A DNA stretch of 64,000 nucleotides, taken from Cephalotus follicularis (Eukaryota; Streptophyta; Magnoliopsida; Oxalidales; Cephalotaceae). Within the stretch, counting starts at the first letter, position 1. Each line of letters begins with the position of its first letter. The DNA lies in the NCBI GenBank assembly GCA_001972305.1, contig BDDD01002138.1, positions 67,555 to 131,554 on the forward strand, given 5' to 3'. Under the pieces are notes generated by a model that did not search any database, was not told the DNA's origin, and saw only the letters and a list, made by a program, of their open reading frames with translations. The position numbers and the translations under genes are program-made. Below, piece after piece: positions 19,881 through 62,177 of the stretch.

Positions 19881-20992
19881 AATGATGTTAGAACCGTATG
19901 AGTAGTCATACTAGGTCTATACGGAGTGTGTTCGGCGTGACAAACCGTATGAGTAGACTCCATTGATCGCATTAAACACCGTTCATTCAGCAACTTTCAT
20001 ATTCACTGACAAGATGTTTGTGGATTTTAATAAGACAGACAAAGTGTGTGTGAAGGTAGAAAATTAAAGAATAAATAAAATATTCAAGGATTTTTATTGA
20101 TAGAATTGAAACAATAATAATTTAGGGTTTGTTCTAACCCAAAAACCTTAAGAAACTAACTACAAAAGATTAGGAAAACTAAACTTAAAAAGTGACAAAG
20201 AAAAGAAGTGGAAAATCGGCTGCTGTGTCTTTTGCTTGTGCTGCCCTTGACTTTCTGCTGCTCTCTTTGCTTTATATATATTGCCCACCAAAAACCTAAA
20301 GCTAATGTAATAAAAAAACCGGCAATTTTTCATTGTCTTTGGCACACGTGAAAAATTGACTGCATATGGACTTTGGCGCTTTTGGTGCGTGTTCTCGTGG
20401 TGCATGGATTTGCTAGAGCCTGGGCGTTTGATGCTTTGATGCATGGTAGGCGCATGAATGGATGCAGGGCTTCGTGGCGCTGACTGATTTGTTTGCAGGA
20501 TGGGATTATGTATTGCATGGCGATGATGGATGATGTGCATTGGCTTGGTGGCGCGCACATGGATGCGTTGTTGCATGGGCTGAATCTGCCGTGAATGGTT
20601 GATTGCTGGAGAATGCATGCAATTTGCATTGATGTAATAGTAATGGCATAATGGTAATATGTCATGTACTCCAAATGTGTCTTTTAACTATATCTCTTCA
20701 CTTGGATCTCAGAATATGTCGACCTAAGAATTAACAGTGCACCAAATAATTTTATGAACGCAATAAGTCTAATATTTGATATGTTTCGGTAACTTCAAAA
20801 GGTTTCATAATTATCATTATGTCATTATCTCGTATTTTGACTCCGAAATTAGCTTATTAGCTCCGTTTATTTCTCTTTCAAAGAATTAAACCGAAAACCT
20901 GAAAATACAACAAAACATGCCTGAGTAATCTGATCCAAGCATAAAAATATAACAAATAGATCATTAAAAATAACACATTTTTATGCTAAACA
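19881..20992 (-). mobile_element. TE-C 5' LTR, partial
   Basis: Aligns with 11272-12379 throughout, including the TATA box (20271-20280), the CT-poor leader and the TGCATG cluster. It carries an insertion of about 34 bp near 20571-20605. The terminal CA at 20991-20992 is followed by gcgtg, the right target duplication. The primer-site side of the LTR is missing. Confidence 0.85.
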
Positions 20993-20997
20993 GCGTG

Positions 20998-21248
20998 AAA
21001 TTCGGGGCTGAAGGGTATCCCTTAAGGAAATGCCGAGGATCTCGGGCATTTCCCCTAATCTCCTCCGGATTTGGTGCTATTGTCCTTATTAGACGTGATG
21101 TCGTGGGTTGGCATCGCTTGGGAGTTATGGCGCATTAATGATTTGATTTTGTAACACTCGACCACGCGTCCATGCCTTAGGAAGACATTTGGCGTCTTCT
21201 CCCGAGGACGCATGGCATCATACTTTAGAGGGGATTTTTCCCATATCA
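20998..21248 (-). mobile_element. TE-D 3' LTR, part 2
   Basis: Continues the D LTR after the TE-C insertion and matches 31191-31443 ('gggtatcccttaa', 'ctcctccggatttggtgcta', 'ttctcccgaggacg'). It ends ccatatca at 21248. Confidence 0.9.
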
Positions 21249-21264
21249 TATGCCCCCATGGTCC
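21249..21264 (-). other. TE-D polypurine tract
   Basis: On the minus strand GGACCATGGGGGCATA abuts the LTR start TGATATGGG. The equivalent in TE-E is ACCACGGGGGCATA directly before its 3' LTR. Confidence 0.8.
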
Positions 21265-21665: not shown

Positions 21666-21673
21666 TTTAAATA
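21666..21673 (+). promoter_or_regulatory. TATA-like box of the TE-D antisense gene
   Basis: TTTAAATA lies 237 bp upstream of the ATG at 21903. In TE-E a TTTAAAT on the coding strand lies 240 bp upstream of the equivalent ATG. The shared spacing supports a real core promoter, with the start site not determined. Confidence 0.5.
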
Positions 21674-21902
21674 CTTCTCTCATTTGATGAGGATTTTTTT
21701 ACGCTTTCTCACTTTCTAGAATCCCCAAAATCTTCTGGAAATCTCTTGCTCTCATAACCTTCAAGTTCAACCTTTTCGTTTCTTCCTTCACCCAGATTCT
21801 TAGGTGAATAACTTCCCTCAGTCTGTTCTCATTTTCTGTTTGAAATCCCTAAGGTTTCATATGTCAACTGCATCTTCGTCTTCCTCTCTCTCTGAAAGCT
21901 CC

Positions 21903-24614
21903 ATGGCCAGAAATAAACAAACCAGGAGGATCATTAGAAGGCCCGAGGATGTAGCCCAAGCATCAACGGGGGTTACGATTGCTGAGCGCCCCCTCAATAT
22001 AGAAGTGGAGATTGAGGCCTCGGCTGCCGGGGTTTCCAACGTAGCAGCGACAAAGGCTGGGTCCAAATTTTCAGGACCTACTTTGGCCAAACCACGATAC
22101 TCCCGAGGAAGCTGGCTGAGTTAGTCAAAGAGTACTCCATCCCTGGTAGCCTACACTTGGAGATCCGTGCTGATTCCATGACGGTCACGGGCTAAGGCTT
22201 CCCCTGCCCCTCTTTGCCAAGATCATCCTCGAGCATTACCAAATCCACCCCTCGATGCTCCAGGCACAGTCCTGAGGATTTATCATTAGATTTCTAGTGA
22301 GGTGCTTGGAGTCCGGGGTGACTGGCATGGTGAGCCTGTTCAAGGAGTTCCACATCTTGAATGCTTCCCCAAAAAAGCGCGATTTCTACTTGAAATCCCG
22401 TGCAAAGATGATCAGGTTGTTGGCCGAGAACACTAAGATGGTTAAGAACTAGAGGGAGAAATATTTCATGGTCATGAACCTCCCAGGCTTCATGCCCAGT
22501 CCTTGGAGTGATACCCTGGACACAGTTGGCCTAAACCAGAGGATGACCTTGACCACGGCCAGGAAGACTGATCTGGGGAAGCTTCTGGTTCTTACCCCCG
22601 AGGAGGTGCTCGTGGTGGTCTCTGAGATCCGGCTGCGGAGACTTGGGCTAAGCGTGTCCCCGGGCCGTAGGGATAGCCTAGAACTGGATGCAGAGGAGGT
22701 TCCCATGGAGATTGAGAGAGGAAGGGACCAGGATATCCGAGGTGAAATTGCATCCTCGGATACCGTTGAAGAGGAGAGTCGTACTTTGCTTTCCTCTAAA
22801 GTCTTTTATTTATTTTTGCTTCATTATTTGTTGTTGATGTGTTACTGATTACTTCTTTGTGATCTTCTGCAGAGATGACAAATCGAGAAATGACCATGGA
22901 CGTCGTCAAGGCTACACGACAGCAAGCCAGGGTGATAAACCCTGAGGAGCAGAGGTAAGAGGCTGCCAGGAAGAAAAAGGCCTTTGAAAGAAGAAAAGCC
23001 CTCCAGAAGACCACTATTGGGGCGCGAAAGGGGGCGGCCAAGTAGCTGCTGAAAAGTCCAGGGCCGAGGAGCATGCCCGGAAGAGGGACAAGGAGGCCAG
23101 GGCCAGGGATGAGGTGGACAATGAGACCAGGACCAGAGACGTGGCCGATGAGTCCAGGGCTAGGGCCGAGGGGGCCATGGATACCCTGGTCAGGGTTACT
23201 AAGGTAGCAAAGGACCAATGTGGCCGTGGGGGCCAGGACTGAGGAAATAAGGGCCGAGATTGCTCGAGGCAAACGGCTCTGTTCTTATGTGCTTGACCAT
23301 CCTTCGAGGAGGCACAGGACAGAGGAGATAGATGCTTCTTAGGATCTGCCCACCTAGGAGGGCTCCCAGGACCATGCCCTCGCTTATCCTGCCAAGGAGA
23401 TGGAGAAGATCAGCAAGGTCCTCAACGCTCTTGGTGGGTTAGGGGTGAACTTGAAAATGCCGGGGGTCACCGTTACACTGGGCTAGACTGGTCTCTTTCT
23501 CCACGAGTTGGAAACGAGGAAGGACTGGGACGCTTGCCACCTTTGGACTCACCTCTTCCAGAGTTGCTTCAGGGTTAGTAAGATTTTTCTAACCTTTTGA
23601 TATCAGTGGATCCTTTATTTTCCTTTAACTGTACATTCTTTTTTTCAGCTCATGAACGATGCCCAACTTGCAATGGAGAGGATTGACCAGGAGAGGGCCC
23701 TGCTTGAGCAACTTGGGACTGAAAACGTTGAGCTTAGGAGGTAGCAGGTCGTGCTATGGGCCCAACTTGATGATGTGATTGGGGTCCAGGAGATCATTAC
23801 TGCTGAAAAGGATAAAGCCCTCAAAGATCTGGCGAGGGAGAAAAAGAAAAGGCTAGCTGCAGCCAACAAAATCGACCTCCTTGAAAAGAAACTGAAGGAC
23901 TACGGCGAGAGGCTCGACAAGCATCAGGAACTCGAGCGGGGCCGGACCAGAGCTACCGCGGAGAGGGCCGTTCTTGACTTCAAGGATTCCACGGAGTTTC
24001 GAGATGCTGAGGACAGAGCCGTGGAGAACTTCAAAGCTTCCATGGAGTTTCAGGATGCTATGGCCCAGGTCGTGAACAACTTCAAGGCCTCTGGGGATTT
24101 TAACAAAGAGGTCTTTAAGAAGTCCTCGGTCTTCTTTCGTCGAGGATTTTACTCCTGTCGAAATATGGTCGAATATCATCATGAGCTTCCACTGGATTCC
24201 ATCATTTGCGGGCCTTCGGTGACTGAGTATGACTTCATTCCTAACGGGGTTGATGGTGCTGAGGAAAGAGCTTTTTGAGCCTTTGACGAGGATCAGAGTC
24301 ATGCTTGGGATCTTGAGTGGATACCTGAGGGTCGCGACATGCTCTTATTCCTTGATACTGCTGAGGAGCCTGGGGCTGAGCCTTCGGCCGCGGAGCCCAT
24401 CTCTCCTATCCTCGATGAGGATCCCACTGTTGATGCCCCCGCTGAAGATCCTGTTCTTGATCCCCTGGCTGAGGGTTCTTTGCCTGGACTCGTGACTGAG
24501 GATTCTCTTAACAAGCGCATGGCTGAAGATCCTCCTCCTCTTCCTGCTGAACCAACTCTTGTGGATCCTCCTCCTCCCATGGCGCATGCCATCCCATCAG
24601 GGAATGAAGATTAG
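21903..24614 (+). pseudogene. TE-D additional gene, antisense to gag-pol, spliced
   Basis: Chosen start: MARNKQTRRIIRRPEDV at 21903, because the equivalent frame in TE-E begins MARVKQTARQ at the same place; an in-frame upstream ATG at 21804 exists. The first exon resembles the Pfam 'putative gypsy type transposon' domain (about 22080-22600; 'GWVQIFRTYF', 'MVMNLPGFMPSPWSD'). An acceptor at 22872 and a 75-nt intron at 23574-23648 separate three exons. The last exon is a long coiled coil (23650-24000), then repeats of 'FKxSxEFxDA', 'YSCRNMVEYHHELPLDSI' and an acidic Pro-rich tail ending HAIPSGNED. Frameshifts near 22080 and stops (22124, 23744, 24276) disrupt it. Function unknown. Confidence 0.75.
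23574..23648 (+). other. Conserved 75-nt intron of the TE-D antisense gene
   Basis: Donor CAGG/GTTAGTAAG, pyrimidine-rich run and acceptor TTTTTTTCAG/CTCATG. The TE-E antisense gene has an intron of exactly the same length at the matching place (51572-51646). An earlier acceptor, GATCTTCTGCAG, ends at 22872; its donor is uncertain. Confidence 0.65.
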
Positions 24615-30905: not shown

Positions 30906-31443
30906 TGTTGATGCAGGAATCCTTCATTCAACAGTATCCTACGTGGAGGACTTTGATTTGTTAGAGGAAACGCTAGGAAATGCCCCAGAAGAAAGTTTGG
31001 TGGTAGTGTTCCTGCACAAGTAGAACAAAGAAACTACGAAGGTCCAGGAGGTTGATCTCCCGGGGACACTCCGACGCTCAAGTTAGACAATGCATAGGAA
31101 GATTTAGGTTCTTTAGTATGTAAAAATGGCTGACCTCTTTAAAGTCGATGGTTTTAGTATTTATAGGCCTGGATTGTAACTGTTGAGTGTGGAATTCAGA
31201 GCTAAAGGGTATCCCTTAAAGAAATGCCGAGATTATTGGGCATTTCCCCTGATCTCCTCCGGATTTGGTGCTACCTTCCTTATTAGACGTGATTCCGTGG
31301 GTTGGCATCGTTTGGGAGTTATGGCGCATTAATGATTTGATTTTGTAATGCCAGATCTCGTGTCCATGCCTTAAGAAGACAACTGGCGTCTTCTCCCGAG
31401 GACGTGTGGCATCATACTTTAGAGGGGATTTTTTCCCATATCA
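30906..31443 (-). mobile_element. TE-D 5' LTR
   Basis: 538 bp. Plus-strand ends are TGTTGATG and CCATATCA, followed by the target duplication atatg (31444-31448). A TATA box (TATAAATA on the minus strand, about 31158-31165) is present. The other D LTR is about 529 bp when its two halves are added. Confidence 0.92.
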
Positions 31444-31448
31444 ATATG

Positions 31449-31654: not shown

Positions 31655-32164
31655 TGTTGTGAGAAAATTTTTACCCAAATAAACTATCACGTGTTCTCTG
31701 AAAATTCACCTATATGTCATCTGGAGCTACATATACGTGGTCAGACGATTCACAATTCAAAATGATAACGCACAACATAACGCTCTGGTGCAAAATAAGG
31801 GAAACGACGAGATACTCGGCCGTTTCCTATGGGTACAATAATCATCTCTGTAATGCAAGCTGATGGTGGGGAGGTGGTTATAACCAGGTGTTCCTATAAA
31901 TAACACAAAGCAACACTTTACATAGGTCAGTTAATTTGAGACTTAAAGAACCTTACTTTATCTTCTCTACCACTATCTGACTTAAGTATCGGAGAGTCCC
32001 CATGAGTAAAATCTCTTGGACCTTCGTTTAGTTTGCTTTTTGTGTGCAGGGAGGACCTCGAAACACATATCCTACATCATCATCGGAGCATACAGTGTGT
32101 TTTCCTCTACAAATCAAACCTCTACGCGTAGGGGACTGTTGTGGTGTTGATTTCGAATTCAATA
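31655..32164 (+). mobile_element. TE-E 5' LTR
   Basis: Begins TGTTGTGAGAAAATTTTTAC. Its last bases are CAATA where the other copy has CAACA. TATA box TATAAATAA at 31895-31903. A 'TTTGCTTTTTGTGTGCAGGGAGG' stretch (given here in part, about 32033-32055) is shared with the 3' copy and could be a splice acceptor. Confidence 0.92.
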
Positions 32165-35880: not shown

Positions 35881-35889
35881 TGAAGCCAG

Positions 35890-38620: not shown

Positions 38621-38621
38621 A

Positions 38622-40830: not shown

Positions 40831-40837
40831 CCCTAAG

Positions 40838-41559: not shown

Positions 41560-41612
41560 CATGGAGGTGGAGGTGGTGGTCGGTTGTGGTTGGTGGTGGT
41601 GGTGGTGGTGGA
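41560..41612. repeat. GGT-rich microsatellite
   Basis: Runs of ggaggtggtggtcgg and ggtggtggtggtggtggtgg inside the 5' leader of TE-I. Confidence 0.8.
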
Positions 41613-41934
41613 AAAAAGTTCCAAGGTAAAAAATGTTCCTTTTGACCTTTTAAACCCTTTTAATGAAATCAATTTTTGTAAAACCAACCCTAGCACCACT
41701 TTCTCCACCATTAAACCCGAAATACTAGGAGAACTCAGGGAGGAGATATGGTGATCAAATGGTCATACCATTAGAGGATAAATTGATCCAAATCAATTTT
41801 CAAACAACTTTGAACAATAAATTTTGCCATAGTTTCCTTGTAATCCTAAGTACCAAATCAGCCCATAAACACCATAAAAACTCAATCAATACAGCAATAT
41901 AAGATCATAATAACAACTTAAAAGCATCAATTAA

Positions 41935-41946
41935 GCTCTAATACCA
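41935..41946 (-). other. TE-I primer binding site
   Basis: On the minus strand TGGTATTAGAGC follows the 5' LTR, one base from the initiator Met tRNA complement TGGTATCAGAGC. Confidence 0.85.
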
Positions 41947-41948
41947 TT

Positions 41949-43039
41949 TGTTTGAATTGGTTTACATAGAAACCCTAAACTAGAAATCGGTTAGCATGCT
42001 ATATAGGTTTCAAAAATTTTCTATCCAATTCCAATCCTTCCCCAAGGATCTTTGATGCTTAAATAAGTTATTAACATGCGTTAAAAAAAATTCTAACAAT
42101 TAGAAGAAGATTAGAACTTACACGATGGAGCCACTCCTTCCTTCAAGTTCCTTTAGGATCCAAGGTAGCCTCCAAGAGTAGGATTGCCTCTAAGATATCC
42201 ACACCAAGAGATCTCCTTTTTTTCACCTTTCTCCAAGCCTTAGGAAGCAAAAGAAACTCTTTTTCTTCTTTTCCAAGAGTCAGCCGAAGTTAGGACAAAA
42301 TGTCCAAGTCTCCTAATTACTTATGCTAGTAAGTTATATATTATGATGTATTAATGTGTAGGAAATATCTTAGCCTTTGGCAACAAGCAACTTAACCATT
42401 AAGTGTTGGACTAAGTCAAAGTAAGACAAGAAGAAACTCTTTCTCTTTCTCTTTCTTCAATTTCGGCCATAAAGGAATTGAGGGACAAAGTGTTATAACA
42501 CTTACCCATTCCTTATACATGCAATTCATTATAACAAGTAACATGTCACTTAACAATTAAGTCACATGGACTATGTCATGGCCGAATTAATGTCCATTAA
42601 ATCATCCCATGACTTAATCAATTAGTGTGTAATACTAATTTATTTCCTTCACACGCGGTATCGGAGATCGATACTTGTATTGTGTGTGACTCTTTAGGTT
42701 CAAAATTACGTGGGTCGTACAATTAAATTGCGATTCCTGTAATCAATCAATCAACATTTTTCATAATATGAAAACATTTTAATTGACATTCCTAATTAAA
42801 ACTCTTTTCATTCTTTTTCATCCGAGATAGGTTATCAAGTTGTCTCATGCATTCTACTGATTAACATCGACATCTAGCAATGCATACTGACCCCCGGGTA
42901 ATAAGAATTTCCTTGAACCATTAAATGCAGGTTCGTGCATGATTATGTCAAACCCTAATAGCTTAATAGTCGGCACCATGATATGATGTCATTGGCCCTA
43001 TCATATTAGAGATGCCCCTCTAATATGAACCAGCGATAT
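41949..43039 (-). mobile_element. TE-I 5' LTR, part 1
   Basis: Aligned to 34043-35175 of the 3' LTR. It is interrupted after gatat (43035-43039) by solo LTR K and continues at 45301. Confidence 0.9.
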
Positions 43040-43620
43040 TGTTGGGAATTGTAAAACCTTCCCGGAGCCGGATTCAGACCAAAGGGTGTTAGAATTTCAA
43101 ACAAAATTTTTTGAACATCATGGCAGCAAAAGTTAAAACATTTTAACACCAACATACAGGTCCAATTCAGCAAAGCAGGTCACAAGGGATCACCACAACA
43201 TAATCATAATCGAATTGGCATCACCAATTCATGCAATGGTGACACACAAACATGGTAAGATAGAGAGAGACAAGGAGTTTATACCGTACGGTGATGGCTC
43301 CTTCATTCTTTGCCTATTCAAGCTTGAGTAGACTCCCGCCAAGCTTTAAGTTCCTCTAAGTCACCAGGTTCCAAAGCCACTAGCCACTGGTGTGTGAAAA
43401 ACAATGTCACTGTTTTCTCTTTCTCACACAATGCTCACAAAGAGAAGATTGTGATTGACAAATGTCATCAATAGCAATCCACCCTAGGTAAGCTTCAAAT
43501 TCTGGTGAAGAAATCTCAGAAGGGATTAACCTAAAGTGTGTATGTTTTTCTTCTGTCTTGCCCAGCAAAAACCCACTCAACAACTCACCAGGTTCACCCG
43601 TTTTTATGCCAACACCGTTT

Positions 43621-43657
<37 letters not shown>

Positions 43658-45295
43658 GTTTCCACTACCACACTCTTGCACACATATTGGATCACGGTGC
43701 TACCTCTAAGGAAGCATGTATCCATGATTCCAATATGCTTCATTTCCATTTTCTAAGATGTGAAAATGGCCGGGAATGGGAGAAAGATCGTGCGCGTATA
43801 GCACGTCCGCAGTAGGCACCCACGTTTGGTGCTTTAAGCGTTGACGCTTTTTCAAAAGCGCTGACGCTTAGACGGGCTAAGCGTCGACGCCTTTCCACAA
43901 GGTATTGATGCTTAGACGTGGCTTAAGCGTCGACGCTTTTCCAAAAGGCGTTGACGCTTTAAAGGCTGATCAAAACAAACAAATATAGTCCAACTCTTAC
44001 TTAAATGAGTCCAACTCATTTTAGTGTTGTATTCCTTCGAATATTGATTTAGTAGGATCAAGTAAATGTGTTTCCACAAATCGCAAAATCCACTTAACCG
44101 ATATTTGATTTTATAAATTTCACCAAGACTTAATATGTCCAACATATTTATGAAGAAATCATTATCGGGTAGGGAGCCTGTAAAATCTCGGTTAGAATCG
44201 GTGATGTTCATAAATTACCAAAATGCCCTAGGGTTCGGTTAAGCCATTCTAAATAGTCCCAGACCTATTTAAATGCTTCCGGACTAATATCCAATATTAT
44301 CCATATGAAAAATTAATCTAATTAATTTTCTCATAATTTATTTCACACTGCCGTCACGCGAGACTTTCTAAGTTGTCAGTTCGCGCGTACTATAATCCAT
44401 TGTCATACTTGGCCCCGATTGAGGTTAAGGGTAAGGATACGTGCCAACCCTAGATAATACCTCAATGCCTAAAATATCTGATCATCACTAGGATCTTTGG
44501 TAGACTCTCTAGAAATTAATTTCCAGTCCACTTCAACCTTGGCCAAGGATTTCATAAGTCCATACTACAATCAGACCATGATAGGGCCGATCACGTTCGC
44601 TCAGGTGTGACAATTCCTTATTGCGCACTCGCTTACATTCATATAGATTCAATCATACCCAAAGACCATCCGATTACCCGCCTAGTGCAAGAACTGGGTA
44701 AGGTGGAGATCAAAGTATAACCGTCTCCATACAATGTAGAGTAGTCGCTCAGGTATAAAGATCAGATGAGTTCAAAAACTCGTCTCTAAGTAACTAGCAC
44801 TTATACCCAACCGCAACAAGTAGGAGTCACTACTGACACGAGAATAACGACTATCCAAATAGTGTCTCCTACGTGGGTCCAGTTCAGTGTACACGCTCCC
44901 AGCGCGCATCCCGTATTTTCCCTAGTGTCCCAACACAGATGGTAGTGAGAGAATCCATCCTCCAATTCCAAAAGCAGGAAACATACGCGCAAGTCTATCC
45001 AGTTCACTAATGCCCACAAAGTGAACCTATGACTTGGAACTAATTCAACATAAGGGATCATGTTGTCAATCTCACTGCCTCCATGCTTGGCATCCAACCT
45101 TATATCAGGGCATCACAAGCGTAAGTAGATTTATAATAACTACTTTGATTATATGATAAAACACAAGTGGTTTTGCCGTATAAAATTATAAACAAAATAG
45201 CACGTGTCATATATCAGAAATAAGATTGTTTATATACATGGATATATGCAATACGAAAACTCATCCAATGGCTTGTCAAGTCATCCTATCTAACA
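43040..45295 (+). mobile_element. TE-K: solo LTR inserted in the TE-I LTR
   Basis: Starts TGTTGGGAATTGTAAAACC and ends CCTATCTAACA. The flanks gatat (43035-43039) and gattt (45296-45300) form an imperfect target duplication, and the uninterrupted site is seen at about 35177 in the other LTR. At 2256 bp and with no internal region it is a solo LTR, by its ends probably copia. A CT tract lies at 43627-43656 and a palindrome array at 43833-43963. The element strand cannot be fixed without internal sequence; plus is given for convenience. Confidence 0.85.
43833..43963. repeat. Six palindromes, consensus AAGCGTCGACGCTT, in solo LTR K
   Basis: Units near 43833, 43854, 43876, 43901, 43922 and 43945: aagcgttgacgctt, aagcgctgacgctta, aagcgtcgacgcctt, aaggtattgatgctt, aagcgtcgacgctttt, aaggcgttgacgcttt. 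Each is an inverted repeat around TCGA or TTGA. TTGAC (W-box) and TGACG (TGA/as-1) words arise within the units. Confidence 0.8.
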
Positions 45296-45300
45296 GATTT

Positions 45301-46005
45301 ATGAACACTTCTTACATATCACTACTTTTGCCCTGGCCAGGGATTTCTACCAATGACCAATCAATATGAGCATCTGTTCCTTTTACTGGGAGCGACAGAT
45401 CCAATTTTACTCACTCACCTATCTCTGCCATAAACCGGCCATACCCAACTAATGCCCGTATACTCCCCGTGGTTAGGAGACATATGTAAGCATTATCAAA
45501 GCATAGCATCTTATGCACAGGATACAAGTGGTGGCTCATGTCTAAGGAGCACTGTTGCACTGCTGCTATCAGGAATGTCCGTTTGACGTACAGTAAAAGT
45601 TCCATTCGGACATTCCTTATTGTGAGTCAACTTTAGTGAACTCATTCACCCACGTGTATTTCCCTTGTCTCCACAAAATGACACTTGAGATTAGTCACCC
45701 TCTAATCGAGCTAGCATATTATGTGCTGGTCTTAGTGGATTAAGCATGCCCTGAGTACTTAATCCTACAACCAGGAAGATTTAAGAATAAAGCTTACCGA
45801 GGTTCTAATTCTCACTTCTTGATCGCATCAAGAATTTCGGTTCCTCCAACTTTAGTCTTAGGGCATTAAAATATTGATACGCAGATTAACATAGAAAATG
45901 AACTCATAGCCATTTATAACAAATTATACATTTTATTGAATATCATTAAAGATGAGTTTACATATCACAACATATGGAAACTACTTGCAGGACTTGTCTC
46001 TAACA
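45301..46005 (-). mobile_element. TE-I 5' LTR, part 2
   Basis: Aligned to about 35182-35865 and ending TCTCTAACA at 46005, followed by the target duplication agact. Confidence 0.9.
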
Positions 46006-46010
46006 AGACT

Positions 46011-46498: not shown

Positions 46499-47785
46499 GT
46501 GGATATTAGAGAAGAAGTGGAGCCTGAGCGCCCACATCCCATGGAGGAGGTCGTGCAAGTGCCTTTGGAGGAAGGAGATGCAGAGAAATTGTTCCAAGTT
46601 GGCTCCCAACTTGGAGAGGTGGAGAAAGAGGAACTAATAACGTTCCTAAAAAATAATAGAGTTGTATTTTCCTGGTCGGCAGAGGAAGTCCCTAGGATCA
46701 GTCCAAAAGTAATGGTGCATAGGCTAAGTGTGGATCCAATGCGGCCTCCGACCAGGCAAAAGAAGAGAAACTTCGCCCCCGAGAGGCAACAGGTGATAGA
46801 AGATGAAGTTAATAAGCTATTGCAAACAGGGTTTATAAGGGAAGTGCAATACTCTGACTGGCTGGCGAACCTGGTCCTAGTCAAGAAGGCCAATGGCAAG
46901 TGGAGGATGTGCATAGACTTTACAGATATCAACAAAGCTTGTCCGAAAGACCACTTCCTCCTCCCGAATATTGATCAATTAGTGGATGCAACATCCGGTT
47001 ATAGAATGCTGAGCTTCTTGGATACTTACTCTGGCTACAATCAGATCCCTATGTACGAGCCATATGAGAACAAGACAGTCTTCATCACTGATAAGTATAT
47101 GTATTGCTACAAAGTTATGCCCTTCGGATTAAAAAATGCTGGAGCGACCTACCAACGGTTGGTCAATAAAATTTTTGAATCTCAAATAGGGAGGAATGTG
47201 GAGGTTTATATTGATGATATGCTCATCAAGACACCGGCAAGAAATCCACATATCAGGGACTTGGATGAGACTTTTGAGGTATTGAGAAGATACTAGATGC
47301 ACCTCAACCCTTCCAAGTGTACTTTTGGGGTCACTTCTGGTAAGTTTCTTGGGTTCATGGTCTCCAGCAGGAGAATAGAGGCTAACCCAGAGAAGATCTC
47401 AACGATTCAGAGCATGAAGCCTCCTCAATATATTAGGGATGTGCAGAGATTAAATGGTAAAATCACACTACTTAGTAGATTTGTTTCCAAGTCAGCAGAG
47501 AAGTGTCTTCCCTTCTTCAAGGTGTTAAAAGACTGCAAGAGGTTTCTCTGGTAGGAAGAATGTCAAGTAGCCTTCAAGAAATTGAAGGAATAATTGGCTT
47601 CCTCTCCTTTGATATCAAAACCAAAAGACAGGGAAAACTTGTATTTGTATATTGCGGTAACACAAGGTGCAGTGAGTGAAGTGCTAGTGAGAGAAGAGGA
47701 CAAAGTTCAAAGGCCGGTGTATTATGTGAGTAAGGCCTTGAATGATGCTGATGGGAGGTATCCAGAGGTAGAGAATCATGCCTAG
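46499..47785 (+). pseudogene. TE-E reverse transcriptase and first RNase H
   Basis: A long open stretch carries 'RQKKRNFAPERQQVI', 'GFIREVQYSDWLANLVLVKK', 'WRMCIDFTDINKACPKDHF', 'SFLDTYSGYNQIPM' and 'VMPFGLKNAGATYQRLV'. The catalytic YIDDM is at 47207-47221. 'LNPSKCTFGVTSGKFLGFMVS' and the first RNase H ('GAVSEVLVREE', 'RPVYYVSKALNDADGRYP') follow. Single stops lie at 47294, about 47552 and about 47590. It is the best preserved RT in the window. Confidence 0.93.
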
Positions 47786-48880
47786 GCTCTGATCATTGTG
47801 GCGAGAAAGCTGAGGTCGTATTTTCAAGCCCATACTATCAAAGTTTTAATCGACAAGCCACTTAGACAAGTGCTATCAAAGGCATACATGTAAGGCAGGT
47901 TGGTCAAGTGGTCTATCGAATTGGGCAAATACGATGTGAAGCACGAAGCTGACCAGCAATAAATCATAGGTCTTGACCGATTTTGTAAGAGGTGATACAC
48001 CTACGGAGTGTATGGAAGAAGACTCCTCTGAAAATGAGAAGGGGTTATGGAAACTATCAGTTGATGGGTTATCCTGCGTATCCGAAAGTGCAGCAGGATT
48101 GGTGCTAACTAGCTCAGATGGGTTGACCTTGGAGTACTCTCTGAGATTTGGATTCAAAGCAACAAATAATGAAGGGGAATGGGAAGCTCTAATTGCCGGA
48201 TTGACAATTGCAAAGCACTTAGAGGTTAAAAAAATAAAAGCCTCTAGTGATTCTTAGTTGGTGGTTGGTCTGGTGAGTGGAGAGTATGAAGCTAGAGAAG
48301 AATCCATGGCTAAACACTTAGCCCATGTTCAGAGTTTGAAGTCAGCTTTCCAAGTATTCTGAGTTTTGAAAGTTCCCATATCAGAAAATGCCAGAGCAGA
48401 CCAGTTATCAAAGATAGCTACTACGAGGGAATTAGAAAGAAACCAAGCAGTACTAGTACACTATCAAGACAGGCACACCATCTTGGAGGCGGATGTGATG
48501 GACATCGATTATCAATAGGAGCCAAATTGGATGACTCCATTCATTAATTGGCTAAAGGATGAAATTTTGCCAGAGGACCCAGAGGAGGCGAGAAGGTTGG
48601 TCTACATATCCAAAAGATACTAATTCAGAGAAGGGATCCTCTACAAAAGGTCATTATCTTTCCCTTTGTAGAGATGTCTAGATCCCTCATAGGCCGACTA
48701 CACCCTAAGGGAGGTCCATGAAGGAGTGTGTGAAAATCACACAAGGGGTAGAACCTTGTCCAATAAATTGTTGAGGCAAGGATATTTCTTTCTGACCATG
48801 CACCAAACTGCCATCGATTTTGTGCGAAAATGTGATAAATGTAAGAGGAATGCCAACATAAGCAGAAGACCATCAGAGCC
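47786..48880 (+). pseudogene. TE-E RNase H connection and second (archaeal-like) RNase H
   Basis: The rest of the first RNase H ('ALIIVARKLRSYFQAH') is followed by the Tat-type second RNase H, with 'LSVDGLSCVSESAAGLVL', 'NNEGEWEALIAGLTIAK' and 'ASSDS*LVVGL' (a stop falls in the S-Q position). An integrase zinc-binding remnant lies at 48780-48860. Many stops interrupt it. Confidence 0.82.
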
Positions 48881-48886
48881 CCCTTT

Positions 48887-49736
48887 GTGAAATGGAGAAT
48901 GGACTTTGTCGGATCATTACTCGTGGCAACAGGGCAGAGAAAGTACCTAATCATGGCAGTGGACTATTTCACTAAATGGGTGGAAGCAGAGCCCATGGCC
49001 ATAATAACGGAGAGCAAGACGGAGAGCTTCGTCTGGAAGTCAATCATTTGCATATTTGGGGTCACCAGAGTAATAGTCTCTGATAATGGGAATAAATTTG
49101 ATTGTGATGCTTTCCGAAACTTTTGCAAGGAGTGAAGAATTGAGTATAGGCTTGCCTCCGTAGCCCACCCCAGAGCAATGGCCAAGCAGAGGTCATTAAC
49201 AGAGAAATAATCTTAGGGTTGAAAAAAAGCCTCGAAGATAGCAAAGGAAGATGGCAGAGGAACTACCAAGTGTATTATGGGCTTATAGAACCACTCCTCG
49301 AACCAAAACTGGTGAGTCCCCATTTAACATTTGTTTTGTATCAGAAGCTATGATACCGGTGGGGATTGGGGTGCACTATCCTAAAGTTGTGCATTTCAAT
49401 GAAACTAATAATGAAGAAGGGTTGAGGAATCTCCTCGACTTAGTGGAAGAGCTCAGAGATAAAGCGACAATCAGAATAACAGCCTACCAACAGAGGGTGA
49501 GCCGCTATTACAACAAAAGGGTAAACCCCAGACCACTAAAGGACGAAGATTTAGTCCTCTGCAATGCTGTAATTACTGATCCTACTGGCACCAGAGGAAA
49601 ATTGGCTCCTAATTGGGAGGGACCTTACAATGTGAAGAAAGTGCTCCGACCTGGAACATTCACCCTTGAAACTCTGGGGAGCATGGAGATTCCTAGGATT
49701 TGGAATGTCGAGCATCTAAGGAAGTATTACCAATGA
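48887..49736 (+). pseudogene. TE-E integrase
   Basis: Core: 'WRMDFVGSLLVATGQRKYLI', 'DYFTKWVEAEPMA' and 'VSDNGNKFDCDAF'. A stop at 49133-49135 (TGG to TGA) and a single-base deletion near 49165 then break the block with the catalytic Glu. From 49251 the frame is open again: 'ELPSVLWAYRTTPRTKTGESPF', 'SRYYNKRVNPRPLKDEDLV', 'GKLAPNWEGPYNVKKV', ending 'WNVEHLRKYYQ'. Confidence 0.9.
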
Positions 49737-50830
49737 AGATTGTAAAAATGTACAAATGTTCAAGAACATCAATAAAGAGAAATTTTTCTTCAAAAGATAC
49801 GTTTCAAGATTGTAGTTCCAAGTTTGCAAGGGACAGGAGGTCCAATGTTCACGTCCTTAAACCTCTGACAGCCTCCAACAAGTTCCCTCAATAGAAGCTT
49901 TAATACAAGCTTGTCAGACCACACCCCTAAGGGGGATGGCAAAGAAGATTCCCAAGGGAGTGATCAGAGCAGGCATTAATACAAGATCAGAGCTCTCCAA
50001 GTCTCGAATAGACTAAGCACTAAAGTAAACTAATGTCTTGAACAAACTAAAGTTTACAATCCAAGAAGACACCCACCAGAGGAGCACCTAAGACTCCAGT
50101 CAGAGGAGCACCTAAGACTCCAGTCAGAGGAGCGCCTAAAGATTTAATACGAGCTCTTCCTAAAAGACTCCTAAGGGAAAAATATTAAAATATTCCTAAG
50201 GGAATGACTAAAAAACTTCTAAGGAAGCAATAAATAAAGACTCCCAAGGGAGAAAATGATGATCGGCAAACTCATGAGAACTTGTCCGACCAGATCTACA
50301 TCGTAACTTGAGAGGCGAACACATAAGAACTCGCAATGATCAAGTTTGTTGGACTGAGCGCTTTGATACAAATGTCCCTAAGGGGACTATAAAGCTCAGA
50401 CGACCTGGTCTGAAAAATATCAAACCAAACAAGATCCTGGTCTGCAAATCCATAAGAACTTATCAGACCAGACATAAAACTTGGTCTGCAAACACTTAAG
50501 AACTCGCAAAGGCCAAGTCTCTTTGCCTAAGCGCTTTGAATCAAAGTGTCCTACGGGGGCTAGAAAGCTTAGGTAACCTAGTCTGAAAAATATCAGACCA
50601 TTATAAAAGAAGTCTACAAAGAAGATAGACTAAATAAAAATTCCTAAGGGAATTACAAAAGCTCGAATGAAGCAGAAATTAAGTTCTATTACTTATATTA
50701 AATTTTCCTAAGGGAAACATAAATGCTCAAACAAAGTTGAAGAAGACAAATTTTATTTATCAAAGAAGAAATTACATTACAAGAGCAAGTTGCTGCAAAA
50801 AGTACAAGGCAAAAAAGAAAAAGTTCTAGC
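49737..50830. repeat. TE-E spacer between integrase and antisense gene, rich in short repeats
   Basis: Non-coding. There is a three-unit tandem repeat of 24 bp (cagaggagcacctaagac..., starting at 50077, 50101 and 50125). A segment of about 115 bp is repeated once at a spacing of about 168 bp (50316-50425 and 50484-50600; 'gaactcgcaa', 'gcgctttga', 'gtctgaaaaatatca'). CCTAAGGG or CCCAAGGG words recur at least nine times. Gag-pol and the antisense gene converge here. Confidence 0.7.
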
Positions 50831-53167
50831 CTAAGCATCATCCCCTGAAGGGATGCTATGTACAAGAGGAGAAACAGGCTCTTGAAAATTCACAGGCTCA
50901 GGAGATAAGATATCCTCGACAGCATGACCAAAGTAGGGGACAATTGCGCGTGATTGCTCTGCCCTTTGCACCTCTTCATTTTTCTCGGAGGTGAGGAGAG
51001 CTTCCGCTTCCTTTGTGTCAATGTTCTCAGGGAAAAAATCAAGCTGCTCCATAGACGGACAACAAACGATATAATCCAGAGGAGTCTCTGGATGGTGAGC
51101 GACCCAGTTGCGGCAGGTATAAAAGCCCATGTGGTAGAGTATCGTAGATTCCTTAAGAACTTCCTCTTCGAAATCTTTGGAAGCCCTAAAGTCATCCATG
51201 GCCCTAGACATAGCATCCTGGAACTTAGCTGAAGCTTTAAACTTCGCAAGGGCTTTGTCAACCGCCGCTTGAATCCAAGCAGTTTCTGTCTCCTGGATCC
51301 TTGAGATCTTTTCCTCCACGACCATTAGCACTTCACCAAGATGCTTATTAGTCTGTACGAGTTTCTTTCCATCCTCCTTCGCCTTGTCAAGAGCATCTAG
51401 AGCCTACCTCTTTTCATCCAAGATGGACTCCTGAGCCCCAACAACGTCCTCCAGCTGGGTACGAGCCGCATCAGTCGACTTCTTGAGCTCGGTAACCTCG
51501 GCGCAAAGCTAGTTGATGAGCTCACAGTCTTCCTTGGCACTTCCCAACAGTATATAGGCGTTATTCAAAGCCTGGAAAAGAAAGACCAAAGTTAAGGGAA
51601 GAGTAGATAGTTCACTTAAAAAGAAAAATAAGATGAAGTTACATACCCTAATGTTGCTCTGAAGGCAGTGGATCCAAAGTTGGTTGACAAACCAACCCTT
51701 TCTTGCATCCATCTCAGCAGGAAGGAGGCACAACCTGCTGAGCACAATGGGTACCCCTGGATTGTTCAATCCAACATCCGAGTTATTGAGCACTTCGAGC
51801 TCCTCTCCTACTCGGCCAATGTCCACAGGCACACCAAGGCCGGCAGGGTCCCTAGAATTCACCCCATGGGGCACACTAGATCGCCCCTAAGAAGAGACTC
51901 CCCTATATCTTCTCTTCTTTTTCTTTTTATATGGAGGGGGCAGGTCATCCGCAACACTTTTGTCATGGGCAGACCTTGCCCTAGTGGCTTCGGCAGCAGC
52001 AGCCTCTGCAGCAGCAACAATAGCAACAACAGCTTCCTTCTCTGCTCTCCTCTTGGTCACCACAGCCACTTTATCCAGAGCTTTCTGCTTCTCCTCAGCA
52101 ACAATCTTAGCTTTCTCATTAGCAGCCCTCAAGATATCAGCTGAAGATCACCAAGAAGCCATTGCTACAAAGAACCACAAGAAATACTTAGTCAAAAGCA
52201 TGAATGGCAAAAGGTGTTAGAAGCAAAAGAGGTAAGGAAGGCTTAATACAGCTTTCCTCCTCCTTAACAGGCGAGGTCATGGGTTCTTCTCTACTATTTT
52301 GATCTCTATCCCCACAGGGATCTCCTCTTCCTCATCCAAGGCATATCGCTGACCAAGGGACATGTTCAGCCCGACACAGCACAAACGATCCTCGAATATG
52401 GTAGAGTTCACTTCCTCTAGCTCCAAAGCAGAGAGCTTCTCCAGGTCTGCCTTCTTTGCTGCAGTCAAAATTTTCCTCTGATTGAGACGTTTGGTATCCA
52501 ACGAGTCGCACCAGTGGCAGGGAGTGAAGCTGGGGAGATTCCTAACAAGGAAGTACCTCCCCCTCCAGTCTTTGACAGATTTTGTAGGGTCCACCAACAG
52601 ATTTTTGGTCTGACCAATGCGCGACTTGAAATAGTATCTGTGCTTTCCAGGAGATGCATTGAGGGAGTGAAACTCCTTGAATAGCCCAATCATTGTTGTT
52701 ACCCTCGTCTCCAAACACCTCATTAGGAAGCCTATGATGAAGGCCTAGGATTATGCTTGAAGCAGCGAAGGGTGAATCTGAAAGTGCCTCAAAATTGCTA
52801 TGGCAAAAGATGATATGGGAAGTCGCAGTCCGTGCGATAGAGCATCCTCAAACACCACAAAGAGACCAGGTTTGCTCTACGTGGACTCCTTGGCATATCG
52901 GGGGAGAAAGAACTCCAAGCTCCTTAGGAAACAGTATTTTTTGCATAATTCTTTCACTTTTTCATGGCGGAGCACAATCCTATCAAAGTGAGTTCTAAAG
53001 ACTTGGACCCCAACCTCGGTAGAGATAACATTAGGAGCGCCCGCAGCGGCGGCATCCATGGCCTCCTCTGCACCAAGAGGACGCTCGGTGACATTCACCT
53101 CCCCTATCACATGACGCACCTCTGTACGGGTAGTGATTTGTCTGGCGGTTTGTTTAACCCTAGCCAT
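50831..53167 (-). pseudogene. TE-E additional gene, antisense to gag-pol, spliced
   Basis: Start chosen at MARVKQTARQITTRTEV (53167), supported by the TE-D counterpart; an in-frame ATG at 53275 lies upstream. Exon 1 (53167 to about 52280) holds a domain resembling the Pfam 'putative gypsy type transposon' family ('VFRTHFDRIVLR', 'MRCLETRVTTMIGLFKEFHSL', 'YYFKSRIGQ', 'WRGRYFLVRNLPSF'), with breaks near 52877 and 52725. A Lys/Ala-rich coiled segment (51887-52132) follows, then a 75-nt intron. The last exon is coiled coil with 'AKFKASAKFQDAMSRAMDDFRASKDF', 'YTCRNWVAHHPETPLDYI' and a tail ending HSIPSGDDA. It contains stops and frame changes. Function unknown. Confidence 0.78.
51572..51646 (-). 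other. Conserved 75-nt intron of the TE-E antisense gene
   Basis: Minus-strand donor ACATTAGG/GTATGTAACT and acceptor TCTTTTCCAG/GCTTTG with a pyrimidine-rich stretch before it. Same length and place as 23574-23648 in TE-D. An earlier acceptor GATCTTCAG ends at 52141, matching GATCTTCTGCAG in D. Confidence 0.7.
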
Positions 53168-53275
53168 TTGGATATTCGGGAAGAGGAGAGAGAGAGGGAG
53201 TGAAGATGAGAAGCCAAGAAAAGCCCTAGAGATTTCCAAATAGTTTTGCAAAATAAACGGAGTAAGACGGCTCAC

Positions 53276-53707
53276 CTGAGATTCTCACAAATAAAAATTT
53301 GAAGAATTTGGTTGAAAGTTTGGGAGTTCGAAAGAAGTGGGAGAGCAAAAGTTTTCAAATCCGAAGAGACGTAAAGAAACTTCTCAAAGAAGAAGAAGCA
53401 ATTTAAAGGGCTCTAGATTGAATTCAGACTATGCGATCTCTGCAAGATTGAACGGTCGAGATCAACCCATCAAATCAGGTGCAGGAAACGAAGAAGCTAT
53501 GCGCGGCAAGTGAAAAGACACAAACGGAAAAAATGCTTACTCTGTCAAGCCATAATTAATGCCAGACTTGGGCCAAATAGCAAGGCCCAAAAGACAAAGT
53601 AGTCCACATTATACATTACAGGCTTAGTTACGCACTAAAGCCCTGCTCAAAGCCAAGACAGGCCACTAGTGCTCTTCCTCCTCTGTCAAGCCCAGAAAAT
53701 GAAGACC
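53276..53707. other. TE-E upstream region of the antisense gene
   Basis: No coding motif. Contains the antisense promoter region and the 3' UTR side of the element's own transcript. GACCGTTCAATCTT on the minus strand (about 53440-53455) resembles ccaccgttaagatc in TE-D. Confidence 0.45.
53401..53407 (-). promoter_or_regulatory. TATA-like box of the TE-E antisense gene
   Basis: On the minus strand CCTTTAAATTG lies 240 bp upstream of the ATG at 53167, nearly the same spacing as in TE-D (237 bp). Confidence 0.5.
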
Positions 53708-53718: not shown

Positions 53719-54228
53719 TGTTATGGGAAAATTTCTACCCAAATAAACTGCCACATGTCCTCTAGAAATTCAGCCATGTGTCATCTGGAGCTACAGACAC
53801 GCGGTCGGACAATTCACAATTCAAAATGGTAACGCACAACATAACACTTCGATGCCAAATAAGGGAAATGGCTAGATACTCGACCGTTTCCTAGGGGTAC
53901 AATAATTATCTCCGTTATGCAAGCTGATGGTAGGGAGGCAATTACAACCAGGTTATCCTATAAATATCACAAAACAACACTTTACACAGGTCGGTCAATC
54001 TGAGACTTAAAGAACCTTACTTTATTTTCTATGCCACTATCTGACTTAAGTATCGGAGAGTCCTTGGGAGTAAAACATCATGAACCTTCGTTTAGTTTGC
54101 TTTTTGTGTGCAGGGAGGACCTCGAAACACATATCTTACATCATCCTCGTAGCGTACGGTACATTTTCCTCTACAAATCAAACATCTACATGTAGAAGAC
54201 TGTTGTGGTGTTGATTTTGACATCAACA
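53719..54228 (+). mobile_element. TE-E 3' LTR
   Basis: 510 bp, the same length as the 5' copy. TATA box TATAAATAT at 53959-53967. Ends CATCAACA, then the target duplication ttaac. Confidence 0.93.
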
Positions 54229-59571: not shown

Positions 59572-61995
59572 TGTAACGACCCGAATTTCCCTTGTACTGT
59601 TCATGCATACTTTGCACCATATTGTACTGTACGGATTTGTATTGAACCGTATCACACTGTATTGAATTGAGGTGTTCATATACCTATTGCTATTGTATTG
59701 ATCACATGCATGTATAGTCGGGATGTTTGGGCTGAGTTTCGGAGAGTTGGCGGAATCGGCTATATAAGACAATTCCTTAGCCATTTCTCTCTTTTTTTTT
59801 TCTCATTCTTCTCCATCTCACTCTATCCCTCCCCTTCTCTCTCTTGCTGAGCAGCATCCATCTTCCTCCCTAGCAGCCCCAAATGGCATCTCCATCAATA
59901 AGGATAGTGAAGTTGAAGGTTGTCGTTTGAGTGAGATAGTAGCTGATTATTGGGGGTTTTCAGCCGATTAATTGATTGGAAGCTCAACTGTTGAAGCTTC
60001 GGTTATATGTAGGACTTCCCTACTTGAATTGCCTGTTGCTTAATTGCATGATTGATTGTATTGTATAGAATTGAAAAACTATGGTTTTTAATGATATCCT
60101 CGATCTAACAGATCTAGAAGGATTAAATTGAAATTAGGAGGTTGTAACAAGTTTTACTAACCTTAAATGAGTGATTTTAACCCTTCGTTTTCAAAGAATG
60201 GTTTTAAATTAGATTTTGACTTGAGATTGGACACTTTTTTAGCACAAAAACCTACCTTGCCCAGCAAAGACATCGACCCTAGCCCATGGATGTCGATGTC
60301 TTCCGCTTTAGAATGATGTATCCTTGATTCCGTAGCAAAGAAATCGACGTCTTTCAAAAACATCGACGTCTTTGCCTTGAGATGTCATCTCCCCAGGAAA
60401 GACATCGATGCTGAACATCGATGCGCATTCCCAAGCTACTTTTATTGAATCGCGTCGACGTCTTTGTTCAAGGACATCGACATCCTTCGGCCAGATCTCT
60501 ATACAAATAGAGAAAGACATCAATGTCTTTCAAAGACGTCGATGTCCTTCTACCATTTTGAAGGAATGCCCTGATACGCATTGATGTCTTTGGCCAAGGA
60601 CATTGACACCTTTCAGGCTGAAGGGAATTTTTAACTGTTTTAAAGCTAGTTTTCAGCTCCTTTTCACATTGCCGCTTGACCGGAGCCTCACTTGAGGTAT
60701 TCAACCATTTGAAACACAGTTTTCTACAATTTTCAAAGATTGAATCGATAAATTGATAGGGTGACAGCTTGAGCCATAGGCGACGATCCAGTGACTTTCA
60801 CCAACCAGATAGATACTTCTTTTTATCTCGTTGATTCGATTGTCACCGTCTATCGGCTATTAACTGGTTGATTGATTGATTGATTGAGCCATAAGTGTTG
60901 TGAGTCTAAGTTCGGAACGTTGGACACATATTCCCATTTCTCCATTAGACATCACCACTTATTGGCATTGTATTGACAGATTGATTGTATTGTATGAATC
61001 CTATAGAGAGACCTTATGATTCGTGTCGGCATGTTAGGTTGTTGACTCTGTCTACCTATTCTGTCGATCGTATCATTTATTGAATTGTATTGACCTGCTG
61101 ATGAGCAGTATTGTACTAATTGACGATTGATGCTCCCTTAAGGTCCGTAGCTCCCTAACGATAACAGTATCTCCCTCAGTTGTAGCTCATCGATATTGTA
61201 TTGACCCAGCTATAGGCTGGAAGATCTACGAGTTCCAGACCTGATCAGTCTAAGAACAGTAGATAGATCTCCCACCTTTTTTGAAGGACTACCTTCCGTG
61301 GGATTGATCATTACTATTGATTGACATTGTACTGACCCGAGGTCGCATGCTCTATAGGATATGATTGTTTGATTGGGTGTTTTATACACCATCATTGAGT
61401 GTCCATCATTGATTGATTGTTATAGATCCTATCCATATGCTCTATTATGGGCCAGTGTCATACGGATAGTCTGATCGCCAATTGTACACATGCATTTGCC
61501 ATATCATGCATTTATATTGTACACCGCACATTTATATTGCATAGACTGTCACTGATATTGCACATTGTACATGCATACATGCTGCATTGGGTTTCTGCTT
61601 AGCCTTGTCGCTAACCCCATCCTTCGGGGTAGGGCTGTGTTGTACTTTTTATGTGCGGCATAGGTAGGGCAGCAGGTAGCAGCGGGTAGAAGGATTGAAG
61701 ATTCGGTGCGACCGCGTGACCATTTTATGTGACTGAGCTTGGATTGTAAATGTACCAACGAGTATTGTATTCAAATGTAATGTGTATTGAAATGAAATGA
61801 CCGGCATAGTATTGTAACTAAATAGTATTGTATGGAATCGTAGGGATGGAATATCGTATTGTATCTTCCGCACAATGACACGTTTTATAAAGTTTTTATT
61901 TTTCCGCACTTTTATATTACTAGTCCCAACCATTGTATTGTATATTGGATTTAGAGTAATGCCACGTATCCATCCTCTGGGCGGGGGGTGTTACA
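59572..61995 (+). mobile_element. TE-B 5' LTR
   Basis: 2424 bp, TGTAACGACCCG...GGTGTTACA. TATA-like ctatataag at about 59759-59767, followed by a CT-rich leader at 59780-59850. It is aligned along its length with 14998-17449. The palindrome array is at 60268-60610. Confidence 0.92.
60268..60610. repeat. Palindrome array, consensus AAAGACRTCGAYGTCTTT, in LTR B
   Basis: About ten copies, for example aaagacatcgaccc (60266), aaaaacatcgacgtcttt (60356), aaagacatcgatgctg (60398), aaagacatcaatgtctttc (60514) and aaagacgtcgatgtcctt (60533). The three-unit 19-bp tandem of LTR A is reduced to two here. Confidence 0.78.
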
Positions 61996-61998
61996 GAA

Positions 61999-62011
61999 TG
62001 GTATCAGAGAC
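61999..62011 (+). other. TE-B primer binding site (initiator Met tRNA type)
   Basis: TGGTATCAGAGAC three bases after the LTR, as in TE-A. Confidence 0.87.
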
Positions 62012-62177
62012 ATTGGTTGGCCTGTTAGTGAAATATATTAATGCAGTGATTGAGATTGACTGAATGGATTTACGTGATATATGTTTTTGCTTATTCATTC
62101 CATTGTTATTGGAAAAGAGATTGATATTGGAATTGAAGAGATTGTATCTAATCATCCCATTGTTTCCTTTTTTAGCA

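What the first reader, a model, noticed from the sequence alone, without database searches (positions are those of the whole stretch)
53129..53167. Histone H3 tail-like N-terminus, MARxKQTxR, on the antisense proteins of both elements
Seen: E begins MARVKQTARQ and D begins MARNKQTRRI. Histone H3 begins MARTKQTARKS. E matches seven of the first eight residues after Met, including the lysine equivalent to H3K4 and the QTAR context; D keeps six. The motif is at the very N-terminus, as needed for recognition by H3-tail readers, which bind a free Ala1-Arg2. Established: N-terminal H3 mimics exist in other proteins and can bind readers such as PHD fingers. Inference: the protein could recruit or saturate H3K4 readers or modifiers to help the element against silencing or in targeting.
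Basis: partly seen in the sequence, partly recalled or inferred. Interest (0 to 1): 0.85.

Follow-up and report, generated by a model that had tools for sequence, protein, structure and literature searches.

The report
H3-tail-like motif in retrotransposon antisense protein
Two decayed plant retrotransposons carry a backwards-facing gene whose protein contains a short stretch resembling the tip of histone H3; the stretch is real and kept by selection, but in related elements it seems to lie inside the protein rather than at its free end, so true histone mimicry is possible only for some copies and is unproven.

Summary
The letters are as reported: E begins MARVKQTARQ (53167, minus); D reads MARNKQTRR (21903, plus). 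Both are the known antisense ORF of Tat/Retand-type Ty3/gypsy elements; E carries Transposase_28 (PF04195/TRP28). In further copies of the same 1.58-Gb genome, 40 of 56 D-type and 16 of 30 E-type rows keep MARxKQTxR in full. Codons there change mostly synonymously (pN/pS 0.09 in codons 2-9, 0.38 in 10-60, D-type against window-D type). Three E-type copies match H3 at all eight residues.
By sequence, the free-N-terminus reading holds only for E-type (29 of 30 copies have no in-frame upstream ATG before a stop or within 60 codons). In D-type, 49 of 52 rows have an in-frame upstream ATG. In a related group (F-type) the motif lies about 60 residues inside, behind a conserved acidic serine-rich block. 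C-type lacks it (0 of 12 read starts). The free end thus looks like a late state of one branch. Most likely this is a short basic contact motif that E-type exposed; H3 mimicry in E-type is possible but untested. My searches reached no other plant.

The parts
53138..53167 (-). H3-tail-like start of the E antisense protein, MARVKQTARQ
50831..53167 (-). E antisense ORF (TRP28 aORF), broken by several stops and intron-like stretches
52658..52858 (-). Transposase_28 (PF04195) domain of E, residues 104-170
   Evidence: 37.1 bits, cut-off 26.2, E 3.6e-9
53401..53407 (-). TATA-like TTTAAAT about 240 nt upstream of the E start; one of eight TATA-like words lies 222-244 nt upstream in 24 of 28 E-type rows (no shuffle control made)
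53271..53277 (-). splice-donor-like AGGTGAG about 110 nt upstream of the E start; AGGTRAG at 95-112 nt in 20 of 28 E-type rows.
53719..54226 (+). 3' LTR of element E, 86% identical to 31655-32162
31655..32162 (+). 5' LTR of element E; E seems split by other repeats between about 34042 and 46006
46541..49736 (+). remains of E pol (ORFs 46541-47296 with the YIDDM reverse-transcriptase motif and 49251-49736), opposite in sense to the antisense ORF
   Evidence: motif name recalled
21903..21929 (+). H3-tail-like motif of the D antisense protein, MARNKQTRR
21861..21902 (+). in-frame upstream ATG and 14-codon serine-rich stretch (MSTASSSSSLSESS) ahead of the D motif
21903..24614 (+). D antisense ORF region, heavily broken (frameshifts and stops)
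21666..21672 (+). TATA-like TTTAAAT upstream of the D antisense ORF
20992..21252 (-). LTR of element D beside the antisense ORF (3' LTR of the minus-strand element), 88% identical to 31186-31448
31186..31448 (-). other LTR of element D (5' LTR of the minus-strand element)

Best explanation
MARxKQTxR is a lineage-conserved short basic motif of the TRP28 antisense protein of Tat/Retand-type retrotransposons, not primarily an N-terminal histone mimic. Shown by sequence: it recurs in the D, window-D (D2), E and F subfamilies, its codons change mostly synonymously at the residues A-R-K-Q-T-R, and in F-type it follows an acidic serine-rich block inside a longer open frame. In D-type 14 serine-rich codons behind a weak AUG precede it. 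In E-type no coding sequence was found ahead of it and it becomes the N-terminus. Inferred: the motif works as a contact arm (nuclear entry, nucleic acid, or a chromatin partner) of a nuclear protein that regulates the element. The acidic block and the basic motif probably act as one module in the ancestral form. The likeness to H3 residues 1-8 is then mostly convergence on A-R-T-K-x-T-A-R, which E-type happens to expose at a free end.
For: Motif kept: Lys5 in 55 of 55 D-type and 27 of 28 E-type rows, Arg3 in 54 of 55 and 28 of 28. pN/pS in codons 2-9 against 10-60: D-D2 0.087 vs 0.38, E-E 0.31 vs 0.51, D-D 0.31 vs 0.33. D-E identity 0.68 at residues 2-9 vs 0.35 after, rank 4 of 93 windows. 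F-type, 20 copies: motif-start Met in 17, Lys in 17, full MARxK[QRK]T in 10, all preceded by a NLFTVSSSESEDEEDRIPLSSV-like block with pN/pS 0.47, against 1.34 before the block and 1.11 after the motif. Frame open to a Met 59-63 residues upstream in 3 of 6 copies whose upstream was read. Tree: C apart, D+E a clade (97/90) apart from F, window-D type and E together (100/99). Nuclear localisation of the maize Grande aORF protein is reported (PMC7264820, passages), and predicted DNA binding of TRP28 (PMC11963269).
Against: E-type and F3 motifs are weakly basic, so a plain nuclear-localisation role fits them poorly. The non-basic residues A, T, Q, T are largely kept too, which a purely electrostatic arm would not need. 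E-type copies (top 30 of 150) and F-type copies were found with queries that contained the motif, which favours copies that keep it. Within D-type the pN/pS contrast is slight. The F group itself is weakly supported (84/68). No experiment and no usable structure model is at hand (pLDDT 37).
Confidence: 0.55

Rival explanations
1. True N-terminal H3 mimic: in E-type (and in D-type by leaky scanning past the weak first AUG) Met is removed and the free ARTK/ARVK end occupies H3K4 readers or demethylases of the host, helping the element against silencing, as SNAG domains do with LSD1.
For: E-type: in 29 of 30 copies no in-frame ATG lies upstream before a stop or within 60 codons (loci, read), and from the TATA-like word to the motif start no ATG of any frame occurs in 19 of the 24 rows with such a word. 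MARTKQTAR in 3 E-type copies (L036, L042, L058). The D first AUG is in a poor context, CTTCCTATGA. Precedents: SNAG as H3-mimicking motif for LSD1 (PMC8080763, passages); VANC anti-silencing proteins of a plant transposon (PMC10398659, passages).
Against: The same kind of motif is kept where it is internal (F-type) and behind a conserved upstream AUG (D-type). 0 of 7 annotated relatives start at it (P0001-P0007). H3 Lys9-Ser10 is not matched.
Confidence: 0.17
2. Writer-substrate mimic that does not need a free end: the lysine in ARTK(Q)TAR is modified by host H3 methyltransferases, or the residues beside it by host kinases, wherever the motif lies.
For: Lys and the flanking residues are kept also in internal copies (17 of 20 F-type; D and E).
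Against: The Gln after the lysine changes to R or K in some F-type copies (MARTKRTARQ, MARTKKTARQ) and the third H3 residue varies (T, V, A, L, N). Nothing tested.
Confidence: 0.1
3. No function tied to H3 or to contacts: slow decay of a shared N-terminal sequence in old copies, with the H3 likeness by chance.
For: Single origin, so only one coincidence is needed. With 1e5 families about 0.17 would match 6 or more of 8 N-terminal residues by chance (recalled frequencies). pN/pS within D-type hardly differs between motif and following codons (0.31 vs 0.33).
Against: Synonymous sites near or beyond saturation between D and E (pS 1.2) while six residues mostly stay. About 0.003 families expected for 7 or more of 8.
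Confidence: 0.13

Closest known systems
TRP28 / Transposase_28 (PF04195) antisense ORF of Retand/Tat LTR retrotransposons (Silene Retand ORF4, maize Grande gene23, rice RIRE2)
   Same: Antisense between pol and 3' LTR; E carries PF04195 above the curated cut-off; unknown function.
   Different: The word 'histone' occurs 0 times in the main texts of the two papers looked into (PMC11963269, PMC7264820; term counts); 'N-terminal' also 0 times in both.
SNAG-domain H3-tail mimics (SNAIL/GFI1 with LSD1)
   Same: E-type puts an H3-like peptide at the very N-terminus of a presumed nuclear protein.
   Different: No binding shown; unrelated protein; the motif appears internal in F-type.
Histone H3 N-terminal tail
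   Same: 7 of 8 first residues in window E, 8 of 8 in 3 E-type copies.
   Different: Only Transposase_28 matched in E residues 1-297; Lys9-Ser10 absent.
VANC anti-silencing proteins of VANDAL transposons
   Same: A plant element-encoded accessory protein that could act on silencing.
   Different: Different elements (that VANDALs are DNA transposons is recalled) and a different protein; no anti-silencing test here.

Membership tests
TRP28 antisense ORF of Retand/Tat elements | PF04195 domain | tested here: met
   E: 37.1 bits, cut-off 26.2. The D domain stretch was not scored by Pfam (the three D pieces given lay outside it and gave no Transposase_28); D groups with TRP28 relatives by tblastn and tree
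TRP28 antisense ORF of Retand/Tat elements | antisense ORF between pol and 3' LTR | tested here: met
   E: pol remains 46541-49736 plus, aORF minus, LTR 53719-54226. D: mirror arrangement
TRP28 antisense ORF of Retand/Tat elements | reverse transcriptase falls in the Retand/Tat lineage | not tested
   no RT tree was made; lineage inferred from the aORF
N-terminal H3 mimic (SNAG type) | H3-like residues at the translated N-terminus | tested here: inconclusive
   sequence supports it for E-type (29 of 30), speaks against it for D-type (49 of 52 with an in-frame upstream ATG) and F-type; no transcript or protein data
N-terminal H3 mimic (SNAG type) | binds an H3 reader, writer or eraser in the H3 pocket | not testable with these tools
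   no binding data
N-terminal H3 mimic (SNAG type) | free, unacetylated Ala after Met removal | not testable with these tools
   Ala at position 2 in 22 of 28 E-type rows and 48 of 55 D-type rows; processing not known
Histone H3 | histone fold | tested here: not met
   only Transposase_28 found in E residues 1-297 at E up to 1

The most novel reading that the evidence does not exclude
A clade of plant Ty3/gypsy retrotransposons encodes, on its antisense strand, a nuclear TRP28 protein whose free N-terminus (ARTKQTAR in the closest copies) is a true histone H3 tail decoy that occupies H3K4 readers or demethylases, evolved by stripping an upstream acidic block from an older internal H3-like module.
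Probability: 0.14. Interest if true: 0.82.

Novelty: new variant of a known kind. Interest (0 to 1): 0.4.

Why it matters
[quoted passage not shown] A selected, H3-like linear motif, next to an acidic serine-rich block in F-type, is a concrete, testable handle on that function. If E-type proteins really are H3 decoys, it would be a new way for a plant retroelement to meet host silencing.

Tried and rejected
Cross-plant test: protein search with the whole E read-through (0 hits at E 0.001), with E 1-296 (2 hits at E 10) and with an alignment (7 hits at E 1, the same 2 among them); all 7 are named Cephalotus follicularis. Scans of viral contigs and genome contigs gave none. So no statement about other plants is made; these searches need shared words and do not show absence.

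Structure: AlphaFold of P0001 with 7 rows gave pLDDT 37; no fold search was made on it.

Genome-wide count of the codon pattern: asked, never answered. Domain-only E query, subfamily of P0005 and locus of P0001: not completed. So the E-type sample rests on a query that contained the motif; N-termini were then read by extension from a match that left out the first 15 residues.

Considered and rejected: capture from a host H3 gene. Most E-type and D-type copies read use AGR for the first Arg; that host H3 genes mostly use CGN is recalled, and no host H3 gene was fetched, so this is weak. Plain NLS: not favoured, since E and F3 are weakly basic.

Literature: listings of searches (20 of 4,359 papers shown; 15 of 76; 15 of 262; 0 found; 9 of 9; 15 of 61) showed, by title and start of abstract, nothing on an H3-like motif in a transposon-encoded plant protein; open-licence library only.

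Full report
WHAT IS THERE. The window lies in an unnamed 1.58-Gb genome. All seven protein relatives found are named Cephalotus follicularis, so that plant or a near relative is the likely source; this is inferred, since the best relative of E is only 65% identical. Element E runs plus-strand between LTRs 31655-32162 and 53719-54226 (86% identical) and seems split by other repeats. Element D runs minus-strand between LTRs 31186-31448 and 20992-21252 (88%). Each has, between pol and the 3' LTR and in the opposite sense, a broken ORF. The E product carries Transposase_28, PF04195 (37.1 bits, cut-off 26.2). [quoted passage not shown] function unknown; PMC11963269: first of five parts, passages and Discussion read; PMC7264820: passages).

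THE OBSERVATION. E starts MARVKQTARQ and D reads MARNKQTRR, at the stated places. The codon pattern occurs twice in the window and in none of 100 shuffles. There is no ATG at 21804 or 53275. D has an in-frame upstream ATG at 21861.

MORE COPIES. Of the 150 scored PF04195 matches (9,886 candidates) I had 8 loci from the search, 80 stretches afterwards and one more. Sixty of them were chosen as likely D-like by profile coverage and open frame, not by the motif; 55 proved D-like. Of 150 scored matches to E residues 1-96 (8,153 candidates) I had the top 30; that query contains the motif, so this sample leans towards copies that keep it. N-termini were read by extending upstream from a tblastn match that excluded the first 13 (D) or 15 (E) residues. 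D-type, 56 rows including window D: 19 MARTKQTRR, 18 MARTKQTKR, 19 others; 40 keep MARxKQTxR in full. E-type, 30 rows, of which window E and L029 are the same locus: 11 MARVKQTAR (that pair counted twice), 3 MARTKQTAR, 16 others; 16 keep MARxKQTxR in full. One D row (L009) is frameshifted and one E row (L034) has a deletion at the start; these and the duplicate were left out of the later counts of 55 and 28. Fourteen of the 100 sequences then held gave no such match: C-type and F-type loci, and L050, which is E-type and was read.

SELECTION. Between D-like copies (53) and the window-D type (D_win, L093), pN/pS is 0.087 in codons 2-9 and 0.38 in codons 10-60. Within E it is 0.31 vs 0.51, within D 0.31 vs 0.33; the last shows little contrast. 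Between E and D, pS in codons 2-9 exceeds 1, while amino-acid change falls mainly on the T/V position and the A/R position. Mean D-E identity is 0.68 over residues 2-9 and 0.35 beyond; this block ranks 4 of 93 windows, behind a GVQVFR block near residues 50-58. So the motif is one of two or three islands that are kept.

WHERE DOES THE PROTEIN START? E-type: in 29 of 30 copies the frame upstream meets a stop, or the 60-codon limit I set (L032, L048, L051), before any ATG; L050 is the exception. In L040 the motif Met itself reads Ile. One of eight TATA-like words lies 222-244 nt upstream in 24 of 28 rows, and in 19 of those 24 no ATG of any frame lies between it and the motif start (no shuffle control). 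A donor-like AGGTRAG lies 95-112 nt upstream in 20 of 28, and 23 of 28 rows have AG directly before the ATG, so a short leader intron ending at the start codon is possible; it would not change the first AUG. Window E itself lacks that AG. D-type: 49 of 52 rows have an in-frame ATG upstream, 48 of them exactly 14 codons away, in a poor context (CTTCCTATGA); the motif ATG mostly has G at +4 but no purine at -3. The 13 linker codons have pN/pS 0.61 in 48 copies: weakly constrained, so both starts remain possible.

THE OTHER GROUPS. C-type TRP28 genes begin with a serine-rich stretch of the MASxSTSSEES kind in 12 copies whose start I read, and 0 of 12 have the motif. One search sorted 30 loci as C-type; for the other 18 no start was read. 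F-type copies (found through L063) read MARAKQTSEH, MARLKQTSEH, MARTKQTSEH, MARTKRTARQ or MARTKKTARQ, among others. Twenty copies were examined: L063 and L084, already held, and 18 of the 151 listed matches, chosen among those that matched from the start of a query containing the motif, so they lean towards keeping it. Met is present in 17 of 20, Lys in 17 of 20, and MARxK[QRK]T in full in 10 of 20. In all 20 the motif follows a block like NLFTVSSSESEDEEDRIPLSSV. That block has pN/pS 0.47 and codons 2-9 have 0.33, against 1.34 before the block and 1.11 after the motif. For six copies I could read further up: in three (L063; L138 with L126; L139 with L131) the frame is open to a Met 59-63 residues before the motif. 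In one (L141 with L121) the frame is open but the matching place reads Ile. In two (L084; L140 with L127) stops interrupt it. Of the three open copies L131 has Thr in place of the motif Lys. No such upstream segment was found in the D-type and E-type loci (best E 0.57).

ORDER OF EVENTS. A TRP28 tree (31 rows, 124 columns, 5 of 27 inner branches well supported, root at the midpoint) puts C apart (100/99), unites D and E apart from F (97/90), and joins window-D type, P0005 and E (100/99); the F group itself is weak (84/68) and the D-type rows are unresolved at their base. The simplest story: a serine-rich acidic block plus basic motif was inside the protein; D-type and window D keep a serine-rich stretch behind an upstream AUG; E lost it and now starts at the motif. 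The free H3-like end is thus probably a late state of one branch.

HOW IT MOST LIKELY WORKS. Shown by sequence: antisense TRP28 ORF, conserved motif, possible start positions. Inferred: a basic contact arm of a nuclear regulator of the element. Whether E-type also fools H3K4 readers is open: such mimics exist (SNAG with LSD1, PMC8080763 passages), and plant transposons do encode anti-silencing proteins (VANC, PMC10398659 passages). Against it: the motif is kept where no free end seems to exist, and none of the seven annotated relatives starts at it. Those relatives start at later Mets, and it was not checked whether their upstream frames are intact.

NOVELTY. Listings of six literature searches of an open-licence library showed no report of an H3-like motif in a transposon-encoded plant protein; four of them showed only the top 15-20 papers. 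The system is a known kind (Retand aORF); the motif and its apparent shift from internal to terminal are a new detail of it.

Noticed in passing
53271-53277 and 53401-53407 (minus); loci: TATA-like word (E 24 of 28 rows at 222-244 nt, D 54 of 55 at 209-237 nt) and AGGTRAG donor-like site (E 20 of 28, D 50 of 55) ahead of the antisense ORF: the antisense gene may have its own promoter and perhaps a leader intron.
   Followed up: partly
L063, L084, L120-L141: F-type TRP28 proteins share an acidic serine-rich block (NLFTVSSSESEDEEDRIPLSSV-like) directly before the basic motif; it might be a kinase target or a histone-chaperone-like acidic stretch.
   Followed up: partly
P0001-P0007: All seven annotated Cephalotus TRP28 proteins found start at Met residues downstream of the motif; annotation may truncate this family.
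   Followed up: no
window 34042-46006: Element E seems split here by other repeats (34042-35180 pairs with 41948-43039 at 89%, 35176-35866 with 45296-46006 at 90%).
   Followed up: no
window 14998-18471 and 59572-63012: A 3.5-kb repeat pair, 79% identical, not related to the finding.
   Followed up: no
window 50305-50427 and 50478-50600: Imperfect direct repeat (76%, spacing 173 nt) between pol and the antisense ORF of E, the region where Retand elements are reported to carry tandem repeats.
   Followed up: no
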